Positions 6,709 through 18,508 of a DNA stretch of 40,989 nt are shown in pieces. Source of the DNA: a virus; the IMG/VR virus record IMGVR_UViG_3300045996_000367, positions 1 through 40,989 of that record. One strand, written 5' to 3'. Position 1 is the stretch's first letter; each line of letters opens with the position of its first letter. Both the position numbers and the translations under genes were made by a program. The notes under the pieces were generated by a model that worked only from the letters and a program-made list of their open reading frames with translations, had not been told where the DNA came from and did no database searches.

Positions 6709-6939
6709 TCAGGCGGCCTTGCGATCCAGCGCGTGGCCGGCACGGGCGCGGCCGCGGCGCAGGGCTGGCAGAAAGAGGTCCGGCCGTTCCAGCTTCACAG
6801 CGGGCGGGATGCCGCGCGTTTTCCAGTTCTGGACCCGCTGCACACTGCCGTCTTTAGTCCAGCCGAGGATCTCGGCCACCTTGACGGGGCCTCCGAGGGC
6901 GGTGACCAATGCCCAATCGGGGTGTTCTGGTGTTTCCAT
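6709..6939 (-). CDS. cro: Cro-like repressor, probably leaderless
   Basis: 76 residues. ALVTALGGPVKVAEILGW, VQRVQNWKTRGIPP and a short basic tail match Cro/YdaS-type helix-turn-helix proteins; the N-W-K-x-R-G-I-P motif closes the recognition helix. The gene diverges from the CI-like repressor across a shared operator. The ATG at 6939 is exactly the predicted +1 of PR, which leaves no 5' leader. An ATG further upstream (6981) lies before the promoter and an internal GTG would cut into the helix-turn-helix. The product should repress PR and PL during lytic growth. Confidence 0.85.
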   Translation of the reverse strand: METPEHPDWALVTALGGPVKVAEILGWTKDGSVQRVQNWKTRGIPPAVKLERPDLFLPALRRGRARAGHALDRKAA

Positions 6940-6945
6940 GCGCCA

Positions 6946-6974
6946 ATTAAACGCGATGTTTAACTCCATGTCAA
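6946..6974 (-). promoter_or_regulatory. PR promoter
   Basis: Minus-strand TTGACA (6969-6974), a 17-bp spacer and TTTAAT (6946-6951), with predicted +1 at 6939. It drives cro and the early operon. The layout is the same as PL at 9139-9167, and each element overlaps an operator palindrome. Confidence 0.88.
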
Positions 6975-6985
6975 ACGCCACGTTT
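6947..6985. promoter_or_regulatory. OR: two repressor operators
   Basis: Two palindromes of the form AAAC-N5-GTTT: TTAAACGCGATGTTTAA at 6947-6963, overlapping the PR -10, and AAACGCCACGTTT at 6973-6985, overlapping the PR -35. Centres are 24 bp apart. The same pair with the same spacing occurs at OL (9126-9166), which strongly supports binding by CI and Cro. Confidence 0.85.
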
Positions 6986-7021: not shown

Positions 7022-7750
7022 ATGGATGAATCAGCGAGTCGGCTCTATACGGCAGCGCGCCTTATGCTGGAGACGGAGGGCCAGACAAACGTCGCGGCAG
7101 CGTTAGGCGTGAGCCCGCAAACACTCAACAACTGGGAGAGCCGCGGCGTCTCCAAGATGGGCGCCATCAGAGCTCAGGCTGTCATCGGCTGCAATGCCAA
7201 CTGGCTTCTTTCTGGCCGCGGAGAGATGACTGCGGAACCAGCCGAGGTCGTTGTTGAAGTTGTCACGACAGGCGACACCAACGACCCGCCCCGCGTTCGC
7301 GGGAGGTATTCCAAAGCGACGCTCGGGGATACAGTGATACCTCAGTACAAGGCCGGCGGCTCCATGGGAGCGGGCCTGTTACTCAGAGACCAGCCTGGAC
7401 ACATCACCAGCTGGCGCGTGACCCCAGAATGGATCCAGAAGAACGTGCACAACGTGACCAGCCCGCAGAACCTTGCGATCGTCACCGGGTTCGGCGACTC
7501 AATGAAGCCGATGTACAACCCGGGCGATCCGCTGCTCGTCGACACCGGTGTGAACGCGGTCGAGTTCGACGGCGTGTACTTCTTTCGCATCGGTGACGAA
7601 GGCTTCATCAAGCGGCTGCAGCGCGTGCCTGGTGAGGGCCTGGTGGCGATCTCCGAGAACAAGGCCTACCGCGACTGGACGATCCGCGACAACATGGACT
7701 TTCAGGTCTTCGCGCGTGTCGTGAAGGTATGGCGAGGCGACGACTACTGA
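7022..7750 (+). CDS. cI: CI/LexA-like phage repressor with S24 autopeptidase domain
   Basis: 242 residues. An N-terminal helix-turn-helix (about 20-45: QTNVAAALGVSPQTLNNWE) binds operators. The C-terminal S24 domain has catalytic Ser160 in GFGDSMKPM and Lys197 in FIKRLQ. The likely self-cleavage site is Ala111-Gly112 in YKAGGSMGAG. RecA-stimulated self-cleavage would induce the prophage. ATG 7022 is chosen because upstream in-frame ATGs lie before the promoter; its Shine-Dalgarno is poor. It diverges from cro and is followed with no gap by an RcsF-like gene, so the lysogeny transcript is polycistronic. Confidence 0.92.
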   Translation: MDESASRLYTAARLMLETEGQTNVAAALGVSPQTLNNWESRGVSKMGAIRAQAVIGCNANWLLSGRGEMTAEPAEVVVEVVTTGDTNDPPRVRGRYSKATLGDTVIPQYKAGGSMGAGLLLRDQPGHITSWRVTPEWIQKNVHNVTSPQNLAIVTGFGDSMKPMYNPGDPLLVDTGVNAVEFDGVYFFRIGDEGFIKRLQRVPGEGLVAISENKAYRDWTIRDNMDFQVFARVVKVWRGDDY

Positions 7751-8116
7751 ATGCCCGTGAAGCTCCTACCTACCCTGCTCTTCATGCTCGCGCTTGCCAG
7801 CTGCGCCTCTGCGCCCGTCATAGAGCACATCGTCATTGACGACAGTTCGGCCGGCATCAGGAACACGGTGCGCGTACTGGAGCGGCCGGTCGGTACCGTG
7901 CTGCAGCAAGTCAGCGCCCGGTCGTGTAAGCGGATGTCCTGGGAGCCGGAGCCGTCGCGTGAAAACGCCGTGGCGCAACTGCAGATCAAGGCGGCCCGCC
8001 TAGGCGCCAGCGGAATAGCCGATGTCCGGTGCGAGCAGGAGACCGGCCGGGAGCTCACGACGAACTGCTGGAGCGCGGTGGTGTGCAGCGCCACGGCTGT
8101 GAAGGCGGGTCCGTGA
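7751..8116 (+). CDS. RcsF-like outer-membrane lipoprotein
   Basis: 121 residues. A signal peptide (KLLPTLLFMLALASC) ends in a lipobox with lipidated Cys18, and Ser at +2 is compatible with outer-membrane sorting. The rest resembles RcsF, the envelope-stress sensor that forms two crossed disulphides. Four Cys stand at 59, 94, 106 and 112; RcsF as I recall it has 74, 109, 118 and 124, so the 35- and 6-residue spacings agree. QIKAARLGASGIADVRC and WSAVVCSATAV match the RcsF core. The ATG directly abuts the repressor stop, so it should be expressed in lysogens. Possible roles are surface alteration, superinfection exclusion or manipulation of host envelope signalling. Confidence 0.78.
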   Translation: MPVKLLPTLLFMLALASCASAPVIEHIVIDDSSAGIRNTVRVLERPVGTVLQQVSARSCKRMSWEPEPSRENAVAQLQIKAARLGASGIADVRCEQETGRELTTNCWSAVVCSATAVKAGP

Positions 8117-8280: not shown

Positions 8281-8456
8281 TCGCGGCCGCGGTGGTGGCC
8301 CAGGCTGGGAGGTCGACCACGTGCAGCCGCTGTGCGCTGGCGGCGCAGATCACCCGCAGCAACCTGCAGTGGATCAGGAAAGAGGACCACCGCTTCAAGA
8401 CGCTGGTGGATGTGAGGGAGTGCAGGAAGGCAAGAAAGAATCCACGTGACGACTGA
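8256..8456 (+). CDS. Small CxxC protein, uncertain gene
   Basis: 66 residues from GTG 8256: an Ala/Val-rich start, CSRC, then a basic segment (LQWIRKEDHRFKTLVDVREC) with a third Cys. It overlaps the previous gene by 25 bp and the next by 11 bp and fills an otherwise empty stretch. The ribosome-binding site is poor. A tiny zinc-binding protein is possible; equally it could be non-coding. Confidence 0.38.
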   Translation: MAQIRSAVVAAAVVAQAGRSTTCSRCALAAQITRSNLQWIRKEDHRFKTLVDVRECRKARKNPRDD

Positions 8457-8685
8457 GAATGCCGATTCGCCAGAGCCGGACGAGGTCGACGAGACAGTCG
8501 TCGCCTATGCCACCATTCTGATGCTGAATGACTTGCTCTACGAGCTGGTGGAGAGAGACCGCCCACTTGCAGCCGCTCTCATACGGCGATTTGAGCGCAC
8601 GCTAGCCTCAGAATTTGCCAAGAGCATGCCACGGTCGTCAGCGATCATTCGTGCATCGATAGAGGGCCTGAAGGCGAGGAAGTAG
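8446..8685 (+). CDS. Small acidic-N-terminus helical protein
   Basis: 79 residues from GTG 8446 with a purine-rich AAGAAAGAA upstream. Acidic disordered N-terminus (residues 1-17), then a helical body (TILMLNDLLYELVERDRPL ... RRFERTLASEF). Part of the repressor transcript. No family recognised. Confidence 0.62.
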   Translation: MTTENADSPEPDEVDETVVAYATILMLNDLLYELVERDRPLAAALIRRFERTLASEFAKSMPRSSAIIRASIEGLKARK

Positions 8686-8686
8686 C

Positions 8687-9031
8687 ATGAGCGAGACCAC
8701 ACCATCCAGAGACGCCTTCTTGCTTCAATTGGAAGAGACACGCGCGGCAGGCCGCAGACACGGCGGAACGGTTACCCCGCCGCCGCCGCGCGATCCATTC
8801 CCGCCGGGCGGCAGTGGAAGCGATAATGACCGCATGAACGAGCGCGTCGAGAAGCTGGAGAAGTTTGCGGAGGACACCCGCGACCGACTCACGCGGATCG
8901 AATCAAAGCTGGACACCTTCGTCACGAAGGCCGATCTCCACCAAGAACTGCACAGCCTGAGTTGGAAGCTAGCCACCCTCTGCTCTGCACTCACCGCCGC
9001 CGTGTACTTCATCGCTAAGAACGTCCAATAG
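8687..9031 (+). CDS. Coiled-coil protein with C-terminal membrane anchor
   Basis: 114 residues: a Pro/Gly-rich N-terminal half, a coiled coil (ERVEKLEKFAEDTRDRLTRIE) and a C-terminal hydrophobic segment (LATLCSALTAAVYFIAKNV). This layout resembles XhlA-like tail-anchored phage proteins. It is the last gene before the terminator of the lysogeny transcript, so a role in exclusion or control of host envelope functions is more likely than lysis; this is inference. Confidence 0.72.
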   Translation: MSETTPSRDAFLLQLEETRAAGRRHGGTVTPPPPRDPFPPGGSGSDNDRMNERVEKLEKFAEDTRDRLTRIESKLDTFVTKADLHQELHSLSWKLATLCSALTAAVYFIAKNVQ

Positions 9032-9051: not shown

Positions 9052-9075
9052 AGCCCGCCGCGCGCGGGCTTTTTT
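9052..9075 (+). terminator. Terminator of the repressor operon
   Basis: Stem AGCCCGC/GCGGGCT (9052-9058 with 9064-9070), 5-nt loop, then TTTTT. It closes the transcript from cI through 9031 and insulates it from PL just downstream. Confidence 0.9.
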
Positions 9076-9125: not shown

Positions 9126-9166
9126 TTAAACATGGTGTTTGACATTTTCATAAACATCACGTTTAA
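9126..9166. promoter_or_regulatory. OL: two repressor operators
   Basis: AAACATGGTGTTT at 9128-9140 and AAACATCACGTTT at 9152-9164, centres 24 bp apart exactly as at OR. They overlap the PL -35 and -10. The surrounding 45 bp align with the PR region read on the minus strand, with about three quarters of bases shared, pointing to duplication or strong selection for a matched switch. Confidence 0.85.
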
Positions 9167-11214: not shown

Positions 11215-11923
11215 GACGCTGTTCCGCTGCTCGTCGATCGGCAAGCTGATGACGGAGCCCAAGACGCTGAAGGAAGGGCCGCTGTCGGTCGGCGCGAAGA
11301 CGTACATCCGCGAGCTGGCCGCGCAGGAGATCTTCGGCGTCGAGTTCGAGTTCTCCAGCCGGGAAACGGAGAAGGGCACACGCTGCGAGGACGACTCGAT
11401 CGCGCTGCTGAATCGCGTGCGCGGGCTGTCCCTGACGAAGAACACCGAGCGTCGCCAGAACGGCTACATCACCGGCGAGTGCGACCTCTTCGACCGTGCG
11501 CCCCGCCGCGGCCACGACCTGAAAACCTCCTGGTCGCTCAAGACTTTCCCGATCTGTGTCGTTGACTGCGTCGACCGCCTCTACGAGTGGCAGATGCACG
11601 GCTACATGTGGCTGTGGGACGCGACCGAATGGGAGGTGAACTACTGCATGGTGAACACGCCGGAGGACCTGATCGGCTACGAGCCGCTGTCCATGCACCT
11701 TGTCGACCACATCCCTGAGCACATGCGGCTCACGACCTGGACGGTGAAGCGCGACGCTGAGAAGGAGGCGCAGATCATCGAGAAGGTAAAGCACGCCCGC
11801 GCCTACTACGCGCAGGTGATCGCCGAGTTCGACGCGAACCACCGGGAGCTGGTCCGCCCCTCCCCCACCCGTCTCAGCACCGTCGAGGCGTTCACCGAGC
11901 ACCGGAAGCTGGAGGCGGCGTGA
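11207..11923 (+). CDS. PD-(D/E)XK exonuclease (YqaJ/lambda Exo or RecB-like)
   Basis: 238 residues. Glu61 in KGTRCEDDSI, Glu91/Asp93 in TGECDLF and Asp104/Lys106 in HDLKTS form the PD-(D/E)XK site; YEWQMHGYMWLW supplies the Q-x-x-x-Y-type motif common in lambda Exo and RecB nucleases. It probably resects dsDNA ends for phage recombination. Its gene overlaps the preceding unknown by 8 bp and the helicase-methyltransferase by 4 bp. Confidence 0.87.
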   Translation: MLETLFRCSSIGKLMTEPKTLKEGPLSVGAKTYIRELAAQEIFGVEFEFSSRETEKGTRCEDDSIALLNRVRGLSLTKNTERRQNGYITGECDLFDRAPRRGHDLKTSWSLKTFPICVVDCVDRLYEWQMHGYMWLWDATEWEVNYCMVNTPEDLIGYEPLSMHLVDHIPEHMRLTTWTVKRDAEKEAQIIEKVKHARAYYAQVIAEFDANHRELVRPSPTRLSTVEAFTEHRKLEAA

Positions 11924-14418
11924 ACGAATACGCTGAGTTCCTGCGCCAGAAGATCAAGATGGCCAGCTTCAAGGGCTTCACGGTGGAGCCCTCGGAGATC
12001 CATCCGATCCTCTACCCGCACCAGCGCGACATCACCAGGTGGGCCGTGCAGGGCGGCAACCGCGCCATCTTCGCGAAGTTCGGCTTGGGCAAGTCGATCA
12101 TGCAGTGCGAGTGGATGCGCCAGATCATCGGCGCCGCGGGCGGCTGCGGCCTGATCGTGTGCCCACTGGGCGTGCGGCAGGAGCTGGTGCGAGACGCGGC
12201 GATGCTCGGCATGCGGCTGGTCTTCATCCGCAGCGCGGCGGAGATCGTCGACGGCCAGGCCTTCTACATCACCAACTACGAGACGGTGCGCGACGGCAAG
12301 CTGGACCCGGCGCTGTTCACCGCGGTCAGCCTGGATGAGGCGAGCGTCCTGCGCTCGTTCGGCAGCAAGACGTATCAGGAGTTCCTGCCGCTGTTCGAGG
12401 GCGTGCGCTTCAAGCTGGTGAACACCGCCACGCCGAGCCCCAACCGTTTCAAGGAGCTGATCCACTACGCCGGGTTCCTCGGCGTGATGGATACGGGCCA
12501 GGCGCTGACCCGCTTCTTCCAGCGTGACAGCGAGAAGGCGGGCAACCTGACCCTCTACCCGCACAAGGAACAGGAGTTCTGGCTTTGGGTGAGCTCGTGG
12601 GCCGTGTTCGTGCAGTACCCGAGCGACCTCGGCCACTCCGACGAGGGCTACCAGCTGCCGGCGATGGAGGTGGTCTACCACGAGGTGCTGACCGACTACA
12701 CGCAGGCCGGCGCCGATCGCGATGGGCAGAACCTCATGTTCCAGAACCCGGCACTCGGCCTGAGCGCCGCGGCAACCGAGAAGCGGGACAGCCTGCCCGC
12801 GCGCGTGGCGAAGGTGGCGGAGCTGGTCCAGCAGGATCCGACCGCGCACTTCGTCATCTGGCACGACCTCGAGGCGGAGCGGCACGCCCTGCAGCAGGCC
12901 TTGCCGGAGGCGGTCAGCGTGTGGGGCAGCCAGGACCTTGAGGAGCGGGAGCAGCGGATCGTCGACTTCGGTGACGGGAAGTACCGCGTGCTTTCCACGA
13001 AGCCGGTGATCGCCGGCAGCGGCTGCAACTTCCAGCGCCACTGCCACCGCGCGATCTTCGCCGGCATCGGCTTCAAGTTCAACGACTTCATCCAGGCATG
13101 CCACCGCATCCAGCGGTTCCAGCAGCCCCACCCGGTACGCATCGACGTGGTCTACAGCGAGGCCGAGCGCGAGGTGCTGCGCACGCTGCAGCAGAAGTGG
13201 ACCCAACACGAGGAAATGGTCGCCAACATGACCGAGATCATCAAGAAGTACGGCCTGAACCAGCTGGCCATGCAGGAGACGCTGGCCAGGTCGATCGGCA
13301 TCGAGAGGATCGCTGTCGCCGGCGAGCGCTTCGCGGTGGCGAACAACGACTGTGTGGAAGAGGCGAAACTGCAGCCGGAAAGCTCCGTCGACCTGATCGT
13401 CACCAGCATCCCCTTCGCGAACCACTACGAGTATTCGCCCTCGTACAACGACTTCGGCCACACGGAAGACAACGACCACTTCTGGGGCCAGATGGACTTC
13501 CTGACGCCGCAGCTGCTGCGGATCCTCAGGCCCGGACGGATCTACGCCTGCCACGTGAAGGACCGGATCCTGTTCGGCAACGTGACCGGCGCCGGCGCCC
13601 CGACCGTGAGCCCCTTCCACTGCGAGGCCATCATGCACGGCCGCAAGCATGGCTTCGACTACATGGGCCTGATTACGGTGGTGACGGACGTGGTTCGGGA
13701 GAACAACCAGACCTACCGTCTCGGCTGGTCGGAGCAGTGCAAGGACGGCACGAAGATGGGCGTCGGCTCGCCGGAGTACATCGTCCTGTTCCGCAAGCCG
13801 CAGACCGATCGATCGAAGGGCTACGCGGACGTGCCGGTGAAGAAGTCGAAGGACAACTACACCCGGGCGCACTGGCAGGTTGACGCGCATGCCTTCTGGC
13901 GCTCCAGCGGCAACCGGCAGATCACCGCCGAGGAACTGGCGCAGCTGGGCCCGGACAAGCTGGCCAGCCTGTTCACGAAGTACAGCCTGCAGCACGTCTA
14001 CGACTACGAGTTCCACGTGCGCATCGGCGAGGACCTGGAGGCGCGCGGCGCCCTTCCGTCGACCTTCATGAGCCTGGCGCCCGGCAGCCATCACCCAGAC
14101 GTCTGGCATGACGTGACGCGCATGCTGACGCTGAATAGCGATCAGTCGCGCCGGGCCGTCGAGAAGCACGTCTGCCCGCTGCAGTTTGACATCGTTGACC
14201 GGCTGATCGAGCGATACAGCAACCTCGACGAGGTGGTGTACGACCCGTTCTGCGGGCTGGGCACCGTACCCTATCGCGCCATCCTGAAGGGCCGGCGCGG
14301 TGGCGGCTCTGAGCTGAACGCCGCGTACTTCATGGACCAGGTGCACTACCTGGGCGCGGCGGAGCGCGAGTTCACCATGCCGACGCTGTTCGACGCGCTG
14401 GAATCGGAGGCCGCATGA
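11920..14418 (+). CDS. SNF2-type helicase fused to an adenine/cytosine-N DNA methyltransferase
   Basis: 832 residues with two enzymatic halves. Residues 30-430 form a SNF2/SF2 helicase: Walker A FGLGKS (54-59), motif II LDEAS (138-142), motif III TATP (169-172), and motif VI ACHRIQRF (393-400). Residues 465-820 form a DNA amino-methyltransferase: motif IV TSIPF (495-499), in place of the usual S/D/N-PP-Y/F, and motif I DPFCGLGTV (775-783). The order IV before I is that of beta-type enzymes. KHVCPLQFDIVDRLI before motif I is typical of N6/N4 methylases. It may modify phage DNA against host restriction while translocating, in the manner proposed for DarB-like proteins. Confidence 0.9.
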   Translation: MNEYAEFLRQKIKMASFKGFTVEPSEIHPILYPHQRDITRWAVQGGNRAIFAKFGLGKSIMQCEWMRQIIGAAGGCGLIVCPLGVRQELVRDAAMLGMRLVFIRSAAEIVDGQAFYITNYETVRDGKLDPALFTAVSLDEASVLRSFGSKTYQEFLPLFEGVRFKLVNTATPSPNRFKELIHYAGFLGVMDTGQALTRFFQRDSEKAGNLTLYPHKEQEFWLWVSSWAVFVQYPSDLGHSDEGYQLPAMEVVYHEVLTDYTQAGADRDGQNLMFQNPALGLSAAATEKRDSLPARVAKVAELVQQDPTAHFVIWHDLEAERHALQQALPEAVSVWGSQDLEEREQRIVDFGDGKYRVLSTKPVIAGSGCNFQRHCHRAIFAGIGFKFNDFIQACHRIQRFQQPHPVRIDVVYSEAEREVLRTLQQKWTQHEEMVANMTEIIKKYGLNQLAMQETLARSIGIERIAVAGERFAVANNDCVEEAKLQPESSVDLIVTSIPFANHYEYSPSYNDFGHTEDNDHFWGQMDFLTPQLLRILRPGRIYACHVKDRILFGNVTGAGAPTVSPFHCEAIMHGRKHGFDYMGLITVVTDVVRENNQTYRLGWSEQCKDGTKMGVGSPEYIVLFRKPQTDRSKGYADVPVKKSKDNYTRAHWQVDAHAFWRSSGNRQITAEELAQLGPDKLASLFTKYSLQHVYDYEFHVRIGEDLEARGALPSTFMSLAPGSHHPDVWHDVTRMLTLNSDQSRRAVEKHVCPLQFDIVDRLIERYSNLDEVVYDPFCGLGTVPYRAILKGRRGGGSELNAAYFMDQVHYLGAAEREFTMPTLFDALESEAA

Positions 14419-17265: not shown

Positions 17266-17480
17266 ACCTCTGGCTGTCCGACGCCGAAGTCGCCGACGCG
17301 ACACGCCGCACCTACCCGGCGGCACAGGGGCGCGTGCTCAAGGCGTGGGGCGTGCCGTTCCAGCGCCGACCGGACGGCACCCTGCAGGTCGGCCGGGCGG
17401 CGATGGAGGCCGCGATGGCCGGCAGTAGGATGGACGGCAAGACCGCGGCCAACGGCCTGAACTGGAGCAAAACCGCATGA
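17262..17480 (+). CDS. DUF4224 family protein, excisionase-like position
   Basis: 72 residues from GTG 17262 (GTGA overlap). LSDAEVADATRRTYPAAQGRVLKAWGVPFQRRPDG is the DUF4224 pattern, a small helix-turn-helix-like domain normally encoded just before tyrosine integrases. By position it may direct excision or regulate int; this is not established for the family. Its stop overlaps the integrase ATG. Confidence 0.82.
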   Translation: MNLWLSDAEVADATRRTYPAAQGRVLKAWGVPFQRRPDGTLQVGRAAMEAAMAGSRMDGKTAANGLNWSKTA

Positions 17481-18508
17481 TCCGCCCTCGCGACCGCGCC
17501 AGCGCCGCCGGCCTGCTGCCGCGCATGGAGGCCCGGCCGCGCAAGGACGGGCTGGTCACGTACCGCTACCACCCGATCGGCGGGAAGCCGGTGAACCTCG
17601 GCACCGACAAGGGCGCCGCGATCAGCCAAGTGCTGGACATGAACGGCCGCAGCACCGACGAAGGCACGATCGGTCAGCTGTGGCGGCTGTACCAGGAAAG
17701 CCCCGGCTGGCTGCGGCTCGGTGACGCCACCAAGGAGTCGTACCGGCAGGCGTGGGCCATGCTCGCCAAGGTGTGGGAGGGCGGCGTGGTCTCCGCCATC
17801 AAGCCGGCGGACGTCGCCCGCTACCTGCGGGTTCACCGGGCCGACGCGCCCGTGCGAGCCAATCGCGAGGTCGCCGTCCTGTCGAACCTGTTCAACTTGG
17901 CGGTGGAGCGCGGCGACATCGAGCGCAACCCATGCCGCGAGGTCCGGCGCAACCCGGAAGACCCGCGCACCCGGTTGGTCGAGAAGGCGGAGCTGCAGCC
18001 GTTCATCGACTGGGCGTTGCAGCAGGGCGACAGCGCGGTGGTGATCGTCAGCATGGCGGAGTTCGCGGCCCTCACCGGCAACCGGCGGGCGGAATTCCGC
18101 AACCTGCACTGGCCGCAGGTGGATGAGGAACTGATCCGGCTGCAGCGGGCGAAGGGGCGGCGCGGCCAGGGCAAGCGCGAGCTGGTGGCGGTCAGCACTG
18201 CCCTGCAGGCCGTGCTGGACCGGATGAAGGCGGCGGCCGGCTACAACCCGATGGGACCGGTCTTCCGCGCGCCGCGCACCGGCAACCCGTACACCGACCG
18301 CGGCTTCAAGGCGATGTGGAACCGCCTGGTGGTCGCCGCCCTGCGCGAGAAGGTGATCGCCGAGCGGTTCACCTTCCACGACCTTCGCGCCCACTACACC
18401 ACCTACTACAAGCTGCAGTTCGGCAGCTTGCCGGAAATGCACGCCGACCCGGCAACGACCGCGCGGGTGTACGAGCGGAGCCGGGAAGTGCGGAGGACAA
18501 GCCTGTGA
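17477..18508 (+). CDS. int: Tyrosine integrase
   Basis: 343 residues. The N-terminal part holds the arm-binding and core-binding (SAM-like) domains (60-160). Catalytic residues visible: Arg203 in TGNRRAEF, His301 and Arg304 in FHDLR, a later His322 and Tyr332 in RVYERS. It would recombine attP (about 18933-18982, 425 bp downstream) with a host tRNA-His gene. It is the penultimate gene of the PL operon, as int is in lambda. Confidence 0.92.
   Translation: MIRPRDRASAAGLLPRMEARPRKDGLVTYRYHPIGGKPVNLGTDKGAAISQVLDMNGRSTDEGTIGQLWRLYQESPGWLRLGDATKESYRQAWAMLAKVWEGGVVSAIKPADVARYLRVHRADAPVRANREVAVLSNLFNLAVERGDIERNPCREVRRNPEDPRTRLVEKAELQPFIDWALQQGDSAVVIVSMAEFAALTGNRRAEFRNLHWPQVDEELIRLQRAKGRRGQGKRELVAVSTALQAVLDRMKAAAGYNPMGPVFRAPRTGNPYTDRGFKAMWNRLVVAALREKVIAERFTFHDLRAHYTTYYKLQFGSLPEMHADPATTARVYERSREVRRTSL

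What the first reader, a model, noticed from the sequence alone, without database searches (positions are those of the whole stretch)
7751..8116. Phage-encoded RcsF-like lipoprotein fused transcriptionally to the repressor
A lipobox protein with the RcsF cysteine pattern (35- and 6-residue spacings kept, 12 instead of 9 between Cys2 and Cys3) abuts the cI stop codon with no gap. It would be made in every lysogen. RcsF senses outer-membrane damage by threading through porins; a phage version could occupy porins, dampen envelope stress signalling or block related phages. I know of no described phage system of this kind.
Basis: partly seen in the sequence, partly recalled or inferred. Interest (0 to 1): 0.85.

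Follow-up and report, generated by a model that had tools for sequence, protein, structure and literature searches.

The report
RcsF-fold lipoprotein beside phage repressor
This temperate phage carries, directly after its repressor gene and between its two operator pairs, a small outer-membrane lipoprotein with the fold of the bacterial stress sensor RcsF; similar lipoproteins sit beside repressors in other phages, which suggests prophages use them to change the host's surface, most likely to keep rival phages out.

Summary
ORF 7751-8116 starts on the base after the cI stop and encodes a lipobox protein with RcsF-type cysteines (spacings 35/12/6). RcsF kinship is real but distant: Pfam RcsF 25.5 bits (cut-off 29), yet an AlphaFold model built without any RcsF sequence finds E. 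coli RcsF first (E 2e-5, TM 0.79). In phage relatives Cys2 and Cys4 are kept or lost together while Cys1 and Cys3 stay, matching RcsF's crossed disulphides. The gene lies in a lambda-type immunity region: operator pair - cI - this gene - terminator - second operator pair (the only four AAACN5GTTT sites in 41 kb), the rexA position. Of 51 distinct genes in this slot of related phages, 36 look exported; RcsF-fold lipoproteins recur there beside unrelated repressors. So: a lysogeny-slot envelope lipoprotein. Best guess is superinfection exclusion by acting on an outer-membrane protein; untested. Damping of Rcs signalling is unlikely if hosts resemble the prophage-bearing family sampled (IgaA and RcsF 0 of 61 genomes), but the window's host is unknown. 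'No described phage system' is too strong: Serratia phage BZS1 p65 was reported as RcsF-like in 2020, without function. Recurrent RcsF-fold cargo in the immunity region appears new.

The parts
6709..6981 (-). cro-like DNA-binding gene, divergent from cI
   Evidence: phrog_8008 DNA-binding E 1.9e-14; homologues in the same place in relatives
6949..6985 (.). first operator pair (OR-like): AAACGCGATGTTT 6949-6961 and AAACGCCACGTTT 6973-6985
   Evidence: AAACN5GTTT occurs 4 times in 41 kb, 0.13 expected; both pairs have 24-bp spacing
7022..7750 (+). cI-type repressor (HTH + S24 autopeptidase)
   Evidence: PF00717 E 2.2e-15, phrog_4 2e-40
7751..8116 (+). RcsF-fold lipoprotein (the finding): signal peptide 1-17, lipidated C18, core about 49-118 with C59, C94, C106, C112
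8113..8280 (+). 55-aa protein with two predicted membrane helices, GTG overlapping the lipoprotein stop (GTGA)
   Evidence: no family match; not found in the loci fetched
8282..8438 (+). frameshifted relic of an exported HNH-type protein, which is intact as the cI-adjacent gene in another prophage (L117)
   Evidence: tblastn 76-81% identity in two frames, E 5e-20
8446..8685 (+). small soluble protein, unknown
   Evidence: ORF list; no family match
8687..9031 (+). coiled-coil plus membrane-helix protein
   Evidence: phrog_6136 E 4e-8; similar gene behind cI in L015/L016
9052..9077 (+). intrinsic terminator-like hairpin and T run ending the cI transcription unit
9128..9164 (.). second operator pair (OL-like): AAACATGGTGTTT 9128-9140 and AAACATCACGTTT 9152-9164
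17477..18508 (+). tyrosine integrase (temperate phage)
   Evidence: PF00589 E 1.7e-8, over the curated cut-off

Best explanation
Gene 7751-8116 is a lysogeny-slot (moron) gene in the rexA position of a lambda-type immunity region. It is probably transcribed with cI, and translated by coupling to the cI stop codon, up to the terminator at 9052, so it is made while the prophage is silent (inferred, about 0.85). The product is exported, lipidated on C18 and, with Ala at +2, sorted to the outer membrane (predicted, 0.85 if the host follows the E. coli sorting rule). It folds as an RcsF-type beta-alpha-beta-beta domain with crossed disulphides C59-C106 and C94-C112 (predicted, 0.85). Its most likely job is superinfection exclusion: the anchored RcsF-fold domain binds an outer-membrane beta-barrel, or the Bam machine that assembles one, and so blocks or alters a receptor or DNA-entry step for related phages (inferred, about 0.45; no binding partner or phenotype was tested).
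For: Fold: first PDB match RcsF E 2e-5, TM-score 0.79 by target length, from an alignment without RcsF; a relative (L121) gives RcsF chains as its five best matches. Cysteine covariation: C1 and C3 kept in every RcsF-like relative aligned, C2 and C4 both present (window, BZS1, L027, E. coli) or both absent (12 others), matching C74-C118 and C109-C124 of RcsF (PMC9907809). Immunity-region anatomy: operators and terminator. Slot: 36 of 51 distinct cI-adjacent genes exported, against 21% for the second and 10% for the third gene downstream. Recurrence: RcsF-like lipoproteins directly behind S24 repressors in L102, L121, L122, L124 and L125, one gene away in L123; the L102 and L121 lipoproteins are 87% identical although the repressors are of different lineages. 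Precedents for exclusion: Ltp, a lipoprotein of the lysogeny module that stops DNA injection (PMC3952083); receptor-matched exclusion lipoproteins in mEpimmI phages (PMC11893012); the cI-distal region is a known moron site with rexAB and bstA (PMC7067206). T7-like phages also carry RcsF-like lipoproteins, one before the RNA polymerase gene, which fits protection of an infected cell.
Against: No expression, localisation, binding or exclusion data. Pfam score under the cut-off. Some RcsF-like phage copies lie elsewhere (BZS1 before the lysis genes, L130/L131 antisense in tail modules), so lysogenic expression is not universal. Not all slot genes are exported.
Confidence: 0.5

Rival explanations
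1. It is an envelope-fitness cargo rather than an exclusion factor: the lipoprotein changes outer-membrane stability, stress tolerance or surface properties for the benefit of the lysogen, as lambda Bor does for serum resistance.
For: The slot holds many unrelated exported proteins, not one exclusion family; the RcsF/YbjQ fold is common among bacterial envelope and small proteins.
Against: Fitness cargo alone does not explain RcsF-like lipoproteins in T7-like phages, although some of those have an integrase or lie in bacterial genomes.
Confidence: 0.25
2. RcsF decoy: it binds IgaA, BamA or porins in place of host RcsF and damps or sets off the Rcs envelope stress response.
For: RcsF fold; a designed RcsF-mimicking peptide activates Rcs and perturbs the outer membrane in E. 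coli (PMC10710380); BZS1 infects Serratia, in the order where Rcs is found.
Against: IgaA and chromosomal RcsF absent from 61 of 61 genomes of the family in which prophages with this kind of cI were found; Rcs is described as conserved in Enterobacteriaceae; proline-rich porin-threading linker missing. The window's own host is unknown.
Confidence: 0.1
3. Lytic-cycle role, such as timing of lysis or spanin-like work at the outer membrane, as proposed for BZS1 p65.
For: BZS1 p65 precedes the holin gene (PMC7556043).
Against: Here the gene is in the cI unit between the operators, which is shut down rather than induced in the lytic cycle.
Confidence: 0.04
4. Hitch-hiking or decaying cargo: the slot collects horizontally moved genes and this one has no current function.
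For: A frameshifted HNH relic sits just downstream, so slot genes do decay.
Against: The ORF is intact, keeps signal peptide, lipobox and both disulphide pairs and has normal codon-position GC.
Confidence: 0.1

Closest known systems
E. coli RcsF (PF16358)
   Same: Outer-membrane-type lipoprotein, beta-alpha-beta-beta core, four cysteines with crossed pairing pattern
   Different: Below the family cut-off; C2-C3 loop 3 residues longer; short linker with one proline where E. coli RcsF has a long proline-rich one; phage gene in a cI operon; no evidence of an Rcs partner
BZS1_p65 of Serratia phage vB_SspM_BZS1 (PMC7556043)
   Same: Phage-encoded four-cysteine RcsF-like lipoprotein with a lengthened C2-C3 loop (spacings 11 and 6) and the NCWSxVxC motif
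   Different: Lies between Q and the lysis genes, not behind cI; has an insertion of about 18 residues; about 30% identical in the aligned part
Lambda rexAB / BTP1 bstA (cI-distal accessory genes)
   Same: Position between cI and the terminator before the second operator set, presumed cI-promoter expression in lysogens
   Different: RexAB and BstA are not lipoproteins and are unrelated in sequence
Ltp of S. thermophilus phage TP-J34; Lpp of mEpimmI coliphages; Cor of phi80/N15; Llp of T5
   Same: Phage lipoproteins acting at the cell envelope to exclude phages; Ltp gene lies in the lysogeny module
   Different: Different folds and families; exclusion was shown for them and not here (Cor and Llp details are background knowledge)
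YbjQ_1 / DUF4156 lipoproteins
   Same: Same structural superfamily; one YbjQ-type lipoprotein also sits directly behind cI in L036
   Different: Lack the cysteine pattern

Membership tests
RcsF (PF16358 / NCBIfam NF008048) | Score above the curated cut-off | tested here: not met
   25.5 against 29 bits in Pfam, 25.7 against 140 in NCBIfam
RcsF (PF16358 / NCBIfam NF008048) | Signal peptide with lipobox | tested here: met
   LFMLALASC18, Ala at +2
RcsF (PF16358 / NCBIfam NF008048) | Four core cysteines in two non-consecutive disulphides | tested here: met
   All four present; C2/C4 covary across relatives while C1/C3 are constant. The bonds themselves were not observed
RcsF (PF16358 / NCBIfam NF008048) | RcsF core fold | tested here: met
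   Foldseek first match 2y1b E 2e-5, TM 0.79, rmsd 2.0; core pLDDT about 78-91
RcsF (PF16358 / NCBIfam NF008048) | Long disordered proline-rich linker that threads through porins | tested here: not met
   About 22 residues with one proline between C18 and the core, against about 33 with eight or more in E. coli
RcsF (PF16358 / NCBIfam NF008048) | Works with IgaA/RcsCDB | tested here: inconclusive
   IgaA 0/61 in a family of prophage-bearing genomes; the window's host is unknown
Lambda-type cI-operon (rex-position) moron | Same strand directly behind cI, before a terminator and the second operator set | tested here: met
Lambda-type cI-operon (rex-position) moron | Expressed in the lysogen | not testable with these tools
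   No expression data; no sigma70-like promoter found between cI and the gene, which is weak evidence
Superinfection-exclusion lipoprotein | Lipoprotein encoded with the lysogeny genes | tested here: met
Superinfection-exclusion lipoprotein | Expression excludes phages | not testable with these tools
   Needs plating assays

The most novel reading that the evidence does not exclude
An unrecognised family of phage RcsF-fold lipoproteins (the two-cysteine clade has no Pfam match at all) is used repeatedly as an exclusion module: anchored in the outer membrane, it inserts into or docks on a beta-barrel in the way RcsF does and so closes a phage receptor. The cI-distal slot of this phage group would be a changing rack of such envelope-exclusion proteins.
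Probability: 0.2. Interest if true: 0.85.

Novelty: new variant of a known kind. Interest (0 to 1): 0.6.

Why it matters
If right, it adds a fold with a well-studied outer-membrane partner chemistry (porins, BamA) to the small set of phage exclusion lipoproteins, shows that prophages reuse an envelope-sensor fold even in hosts that seem to lack the signalling pathway, and marks the gene directly behind cI as a place to look for envelope-acting exclusion or fitness proteins in a large group of temperate phages.

Tried and rejected
Close relatives by single sequence: none in 2.9 million viral contigs, 85,000 genomes or the plasmid collection. E. coli RcsF as query finds no phage copies apart from two Salmonella records, one a large draft-genome contig and one a short fragment. 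PHROGs has no family for the protein; the Rz-like spanin hint (E 0.11) covers the signal peptide only. The viral fold library gave one weak heavy-metal-binding match. The idea that the slot is an RcsF-specific site was rejected: relatives hold many unrelated exported proteins. Host assignment failed: no tRNA genes in the window, no close phage, genome handles unnamed. Partner status of the 55-aa membrane protein: no relatives in the loci fetched. Terminators behind the lipoprotein in L102 and L122: no convincing site. Disulphide distances could not be measured because model coordinates are not exposed.

Full report
Observation. The product has a signal peptide and lipobox (C18) and cysteines C59, C94, C106 and C112 with spacings 35/12/6. 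Codon-position GC resembles its neighbours.

Kinship. Pfam RcsF scores 25.5 bits (E 1.3e-5) against a cut-off of 29, and YbjQ_1 21.9 against 23. By sequence the only PDB chains that match are RcsF. I folded the protein with an alignment of phage and Pseudomonas relatives and no RcsF sequence. The core reaches pLDDT of about 78-91, and its first fold match is E. coli RcsF, E 2e-5, TM-score 0.79. A relative from another phage gives RcsF as its five best matches. Across the RcsF-like relatives Cys1 and Cys3 never vary, while Cys2 and Cys4 are present together or absent together. That is what RcsF's bonds C74-C118 and C109-C124 predict (PMC9907809). So it belongs to the RcsF-fold superfamily but is not an RcsF orthologue: the curated cut-offs are missed and the proline-rich linker is absent.

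Anatomy. The motif AAACN5GTTT occurs four times in the 41-kb window (0.13 expected): twice between cro and cI, and twice at 9128-9164, each pair with 24-bp spacing. An intrinsic-terminator-like site lies at 9052. The order operator pair - cI - lipoprotein - small genes - terminator - operator pair is the lambda plan OR-cI-rexA-rexB-terminator-OL, with the lipoprotein in the rexA place. The phage has an integrase. The cI-distal region of lambdoid phages is a recognised moron site, and bstA there is transcribed from the cI promoter (PMC7067206). Expression of our gene in lysogens is therefore inferred and was not measured.

The slot. I collected 80 viral loci encoding the same type of cI C-terminus and examined the next gene. 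Among 51 distinct genes, 17 are lipoproteins and 19 have signal peptides by a simple rule (71%), against 21% of second genes, 10% of third genes and 10.5% of other ORFs. The classifier and gene calls are crude and the phages are related, so the size of the effect matters more than the P values. The slot proteins are of many unrelated kinds. RcsF-superfamily lipoproteins recur there: L102 (RcsF-like, two cysteines) and L036 (YbjQ_1 over its cut-off).

A search starting from the lipoprotein, blind to repressors, found more phages. In L121, L122, L124 and L125 it lies directly behind an S24 repressor of another lineage, and in L123 one gene away. The L102 and L121 lipoproteins are 87% identical although their repressors are not of one lineage, so the cargo moves between immunity regions. 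In L132 it overlaps the end of a gene with only a weak helix-turn-helix match, which I do not count. Other copies are in T7-like phages, antisense in tail modules (L130, L131) and beside an integrase in a bacterial genome (L133).

Function. Anatomy and the exported-protein bias point to an envelope function during lysogeny. Exclusion of other phages is the leading idea because lysogeny-module or prophage lipoproteins with that function are known (Ltp, PMC3952083; mEpimmI Lpp matched to the receptor used, PMC11893012), and because T7-like phages also carry relatives. I give exclusion about 0.45. General envelope fitness is the main rival. The host of this window could not be named.

Novelty. 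An RcsF-like phage lipoprotein has been reported once, BZS1 p65, with no function (PMC7556043), and morons behind cI are well known. I found no report in the library searched of RcsF-fold lipoproteins as recurrent immunity-region cargo, or of the exported-protein bias of this slot. The library holds open-licence papers only. I rate it a new variant of a known kind.

Noticed in passing
window 8282-8438; L117 slot gene; L116; L052: Frameshifted relic of an exported HNH-type protein, intact directly behind cI in prophage L117 and present near cI in L116; a periplasmic nuclease in the same slot would be an interesting exclusion candidate.
   Followed up: partly
L002 (OQ622254 1581-1976), L003, L006-L008, L128; Pseudomonas genome loci L023-L026: T7-like phages, one annotated with an integrase just upstream, and four Pseudomonas genomes carry two-cysteine RcsF-like lipoproteins.
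   Followed up: partly
L130 3959-4345, L131 507-893: RcsF-like genes on the opposite strand inside phage tail modules, a classic moron arrangement.
   Followed up: no
L011/L045, L014, L078 genes directly behind cI: A family of lipoproteins of about 92 residues with no Pfam match (tested for L011 and L014) recurs in the same slot.
   Followed up: no
L004 6435-7160 (Bordetella phage IFTN9): The slot gene is an exported tRNA_anti-like (OB-fold) protein with an LprI-like N-terminus.
   Followed up: no
window 11920-14418: One 832-residue ORF matches both SNF2-type DNA helicase and DNA methyltransferase families; similar DNA (about 71%) occurs in Pseudomonas phages.
   Followed up: no
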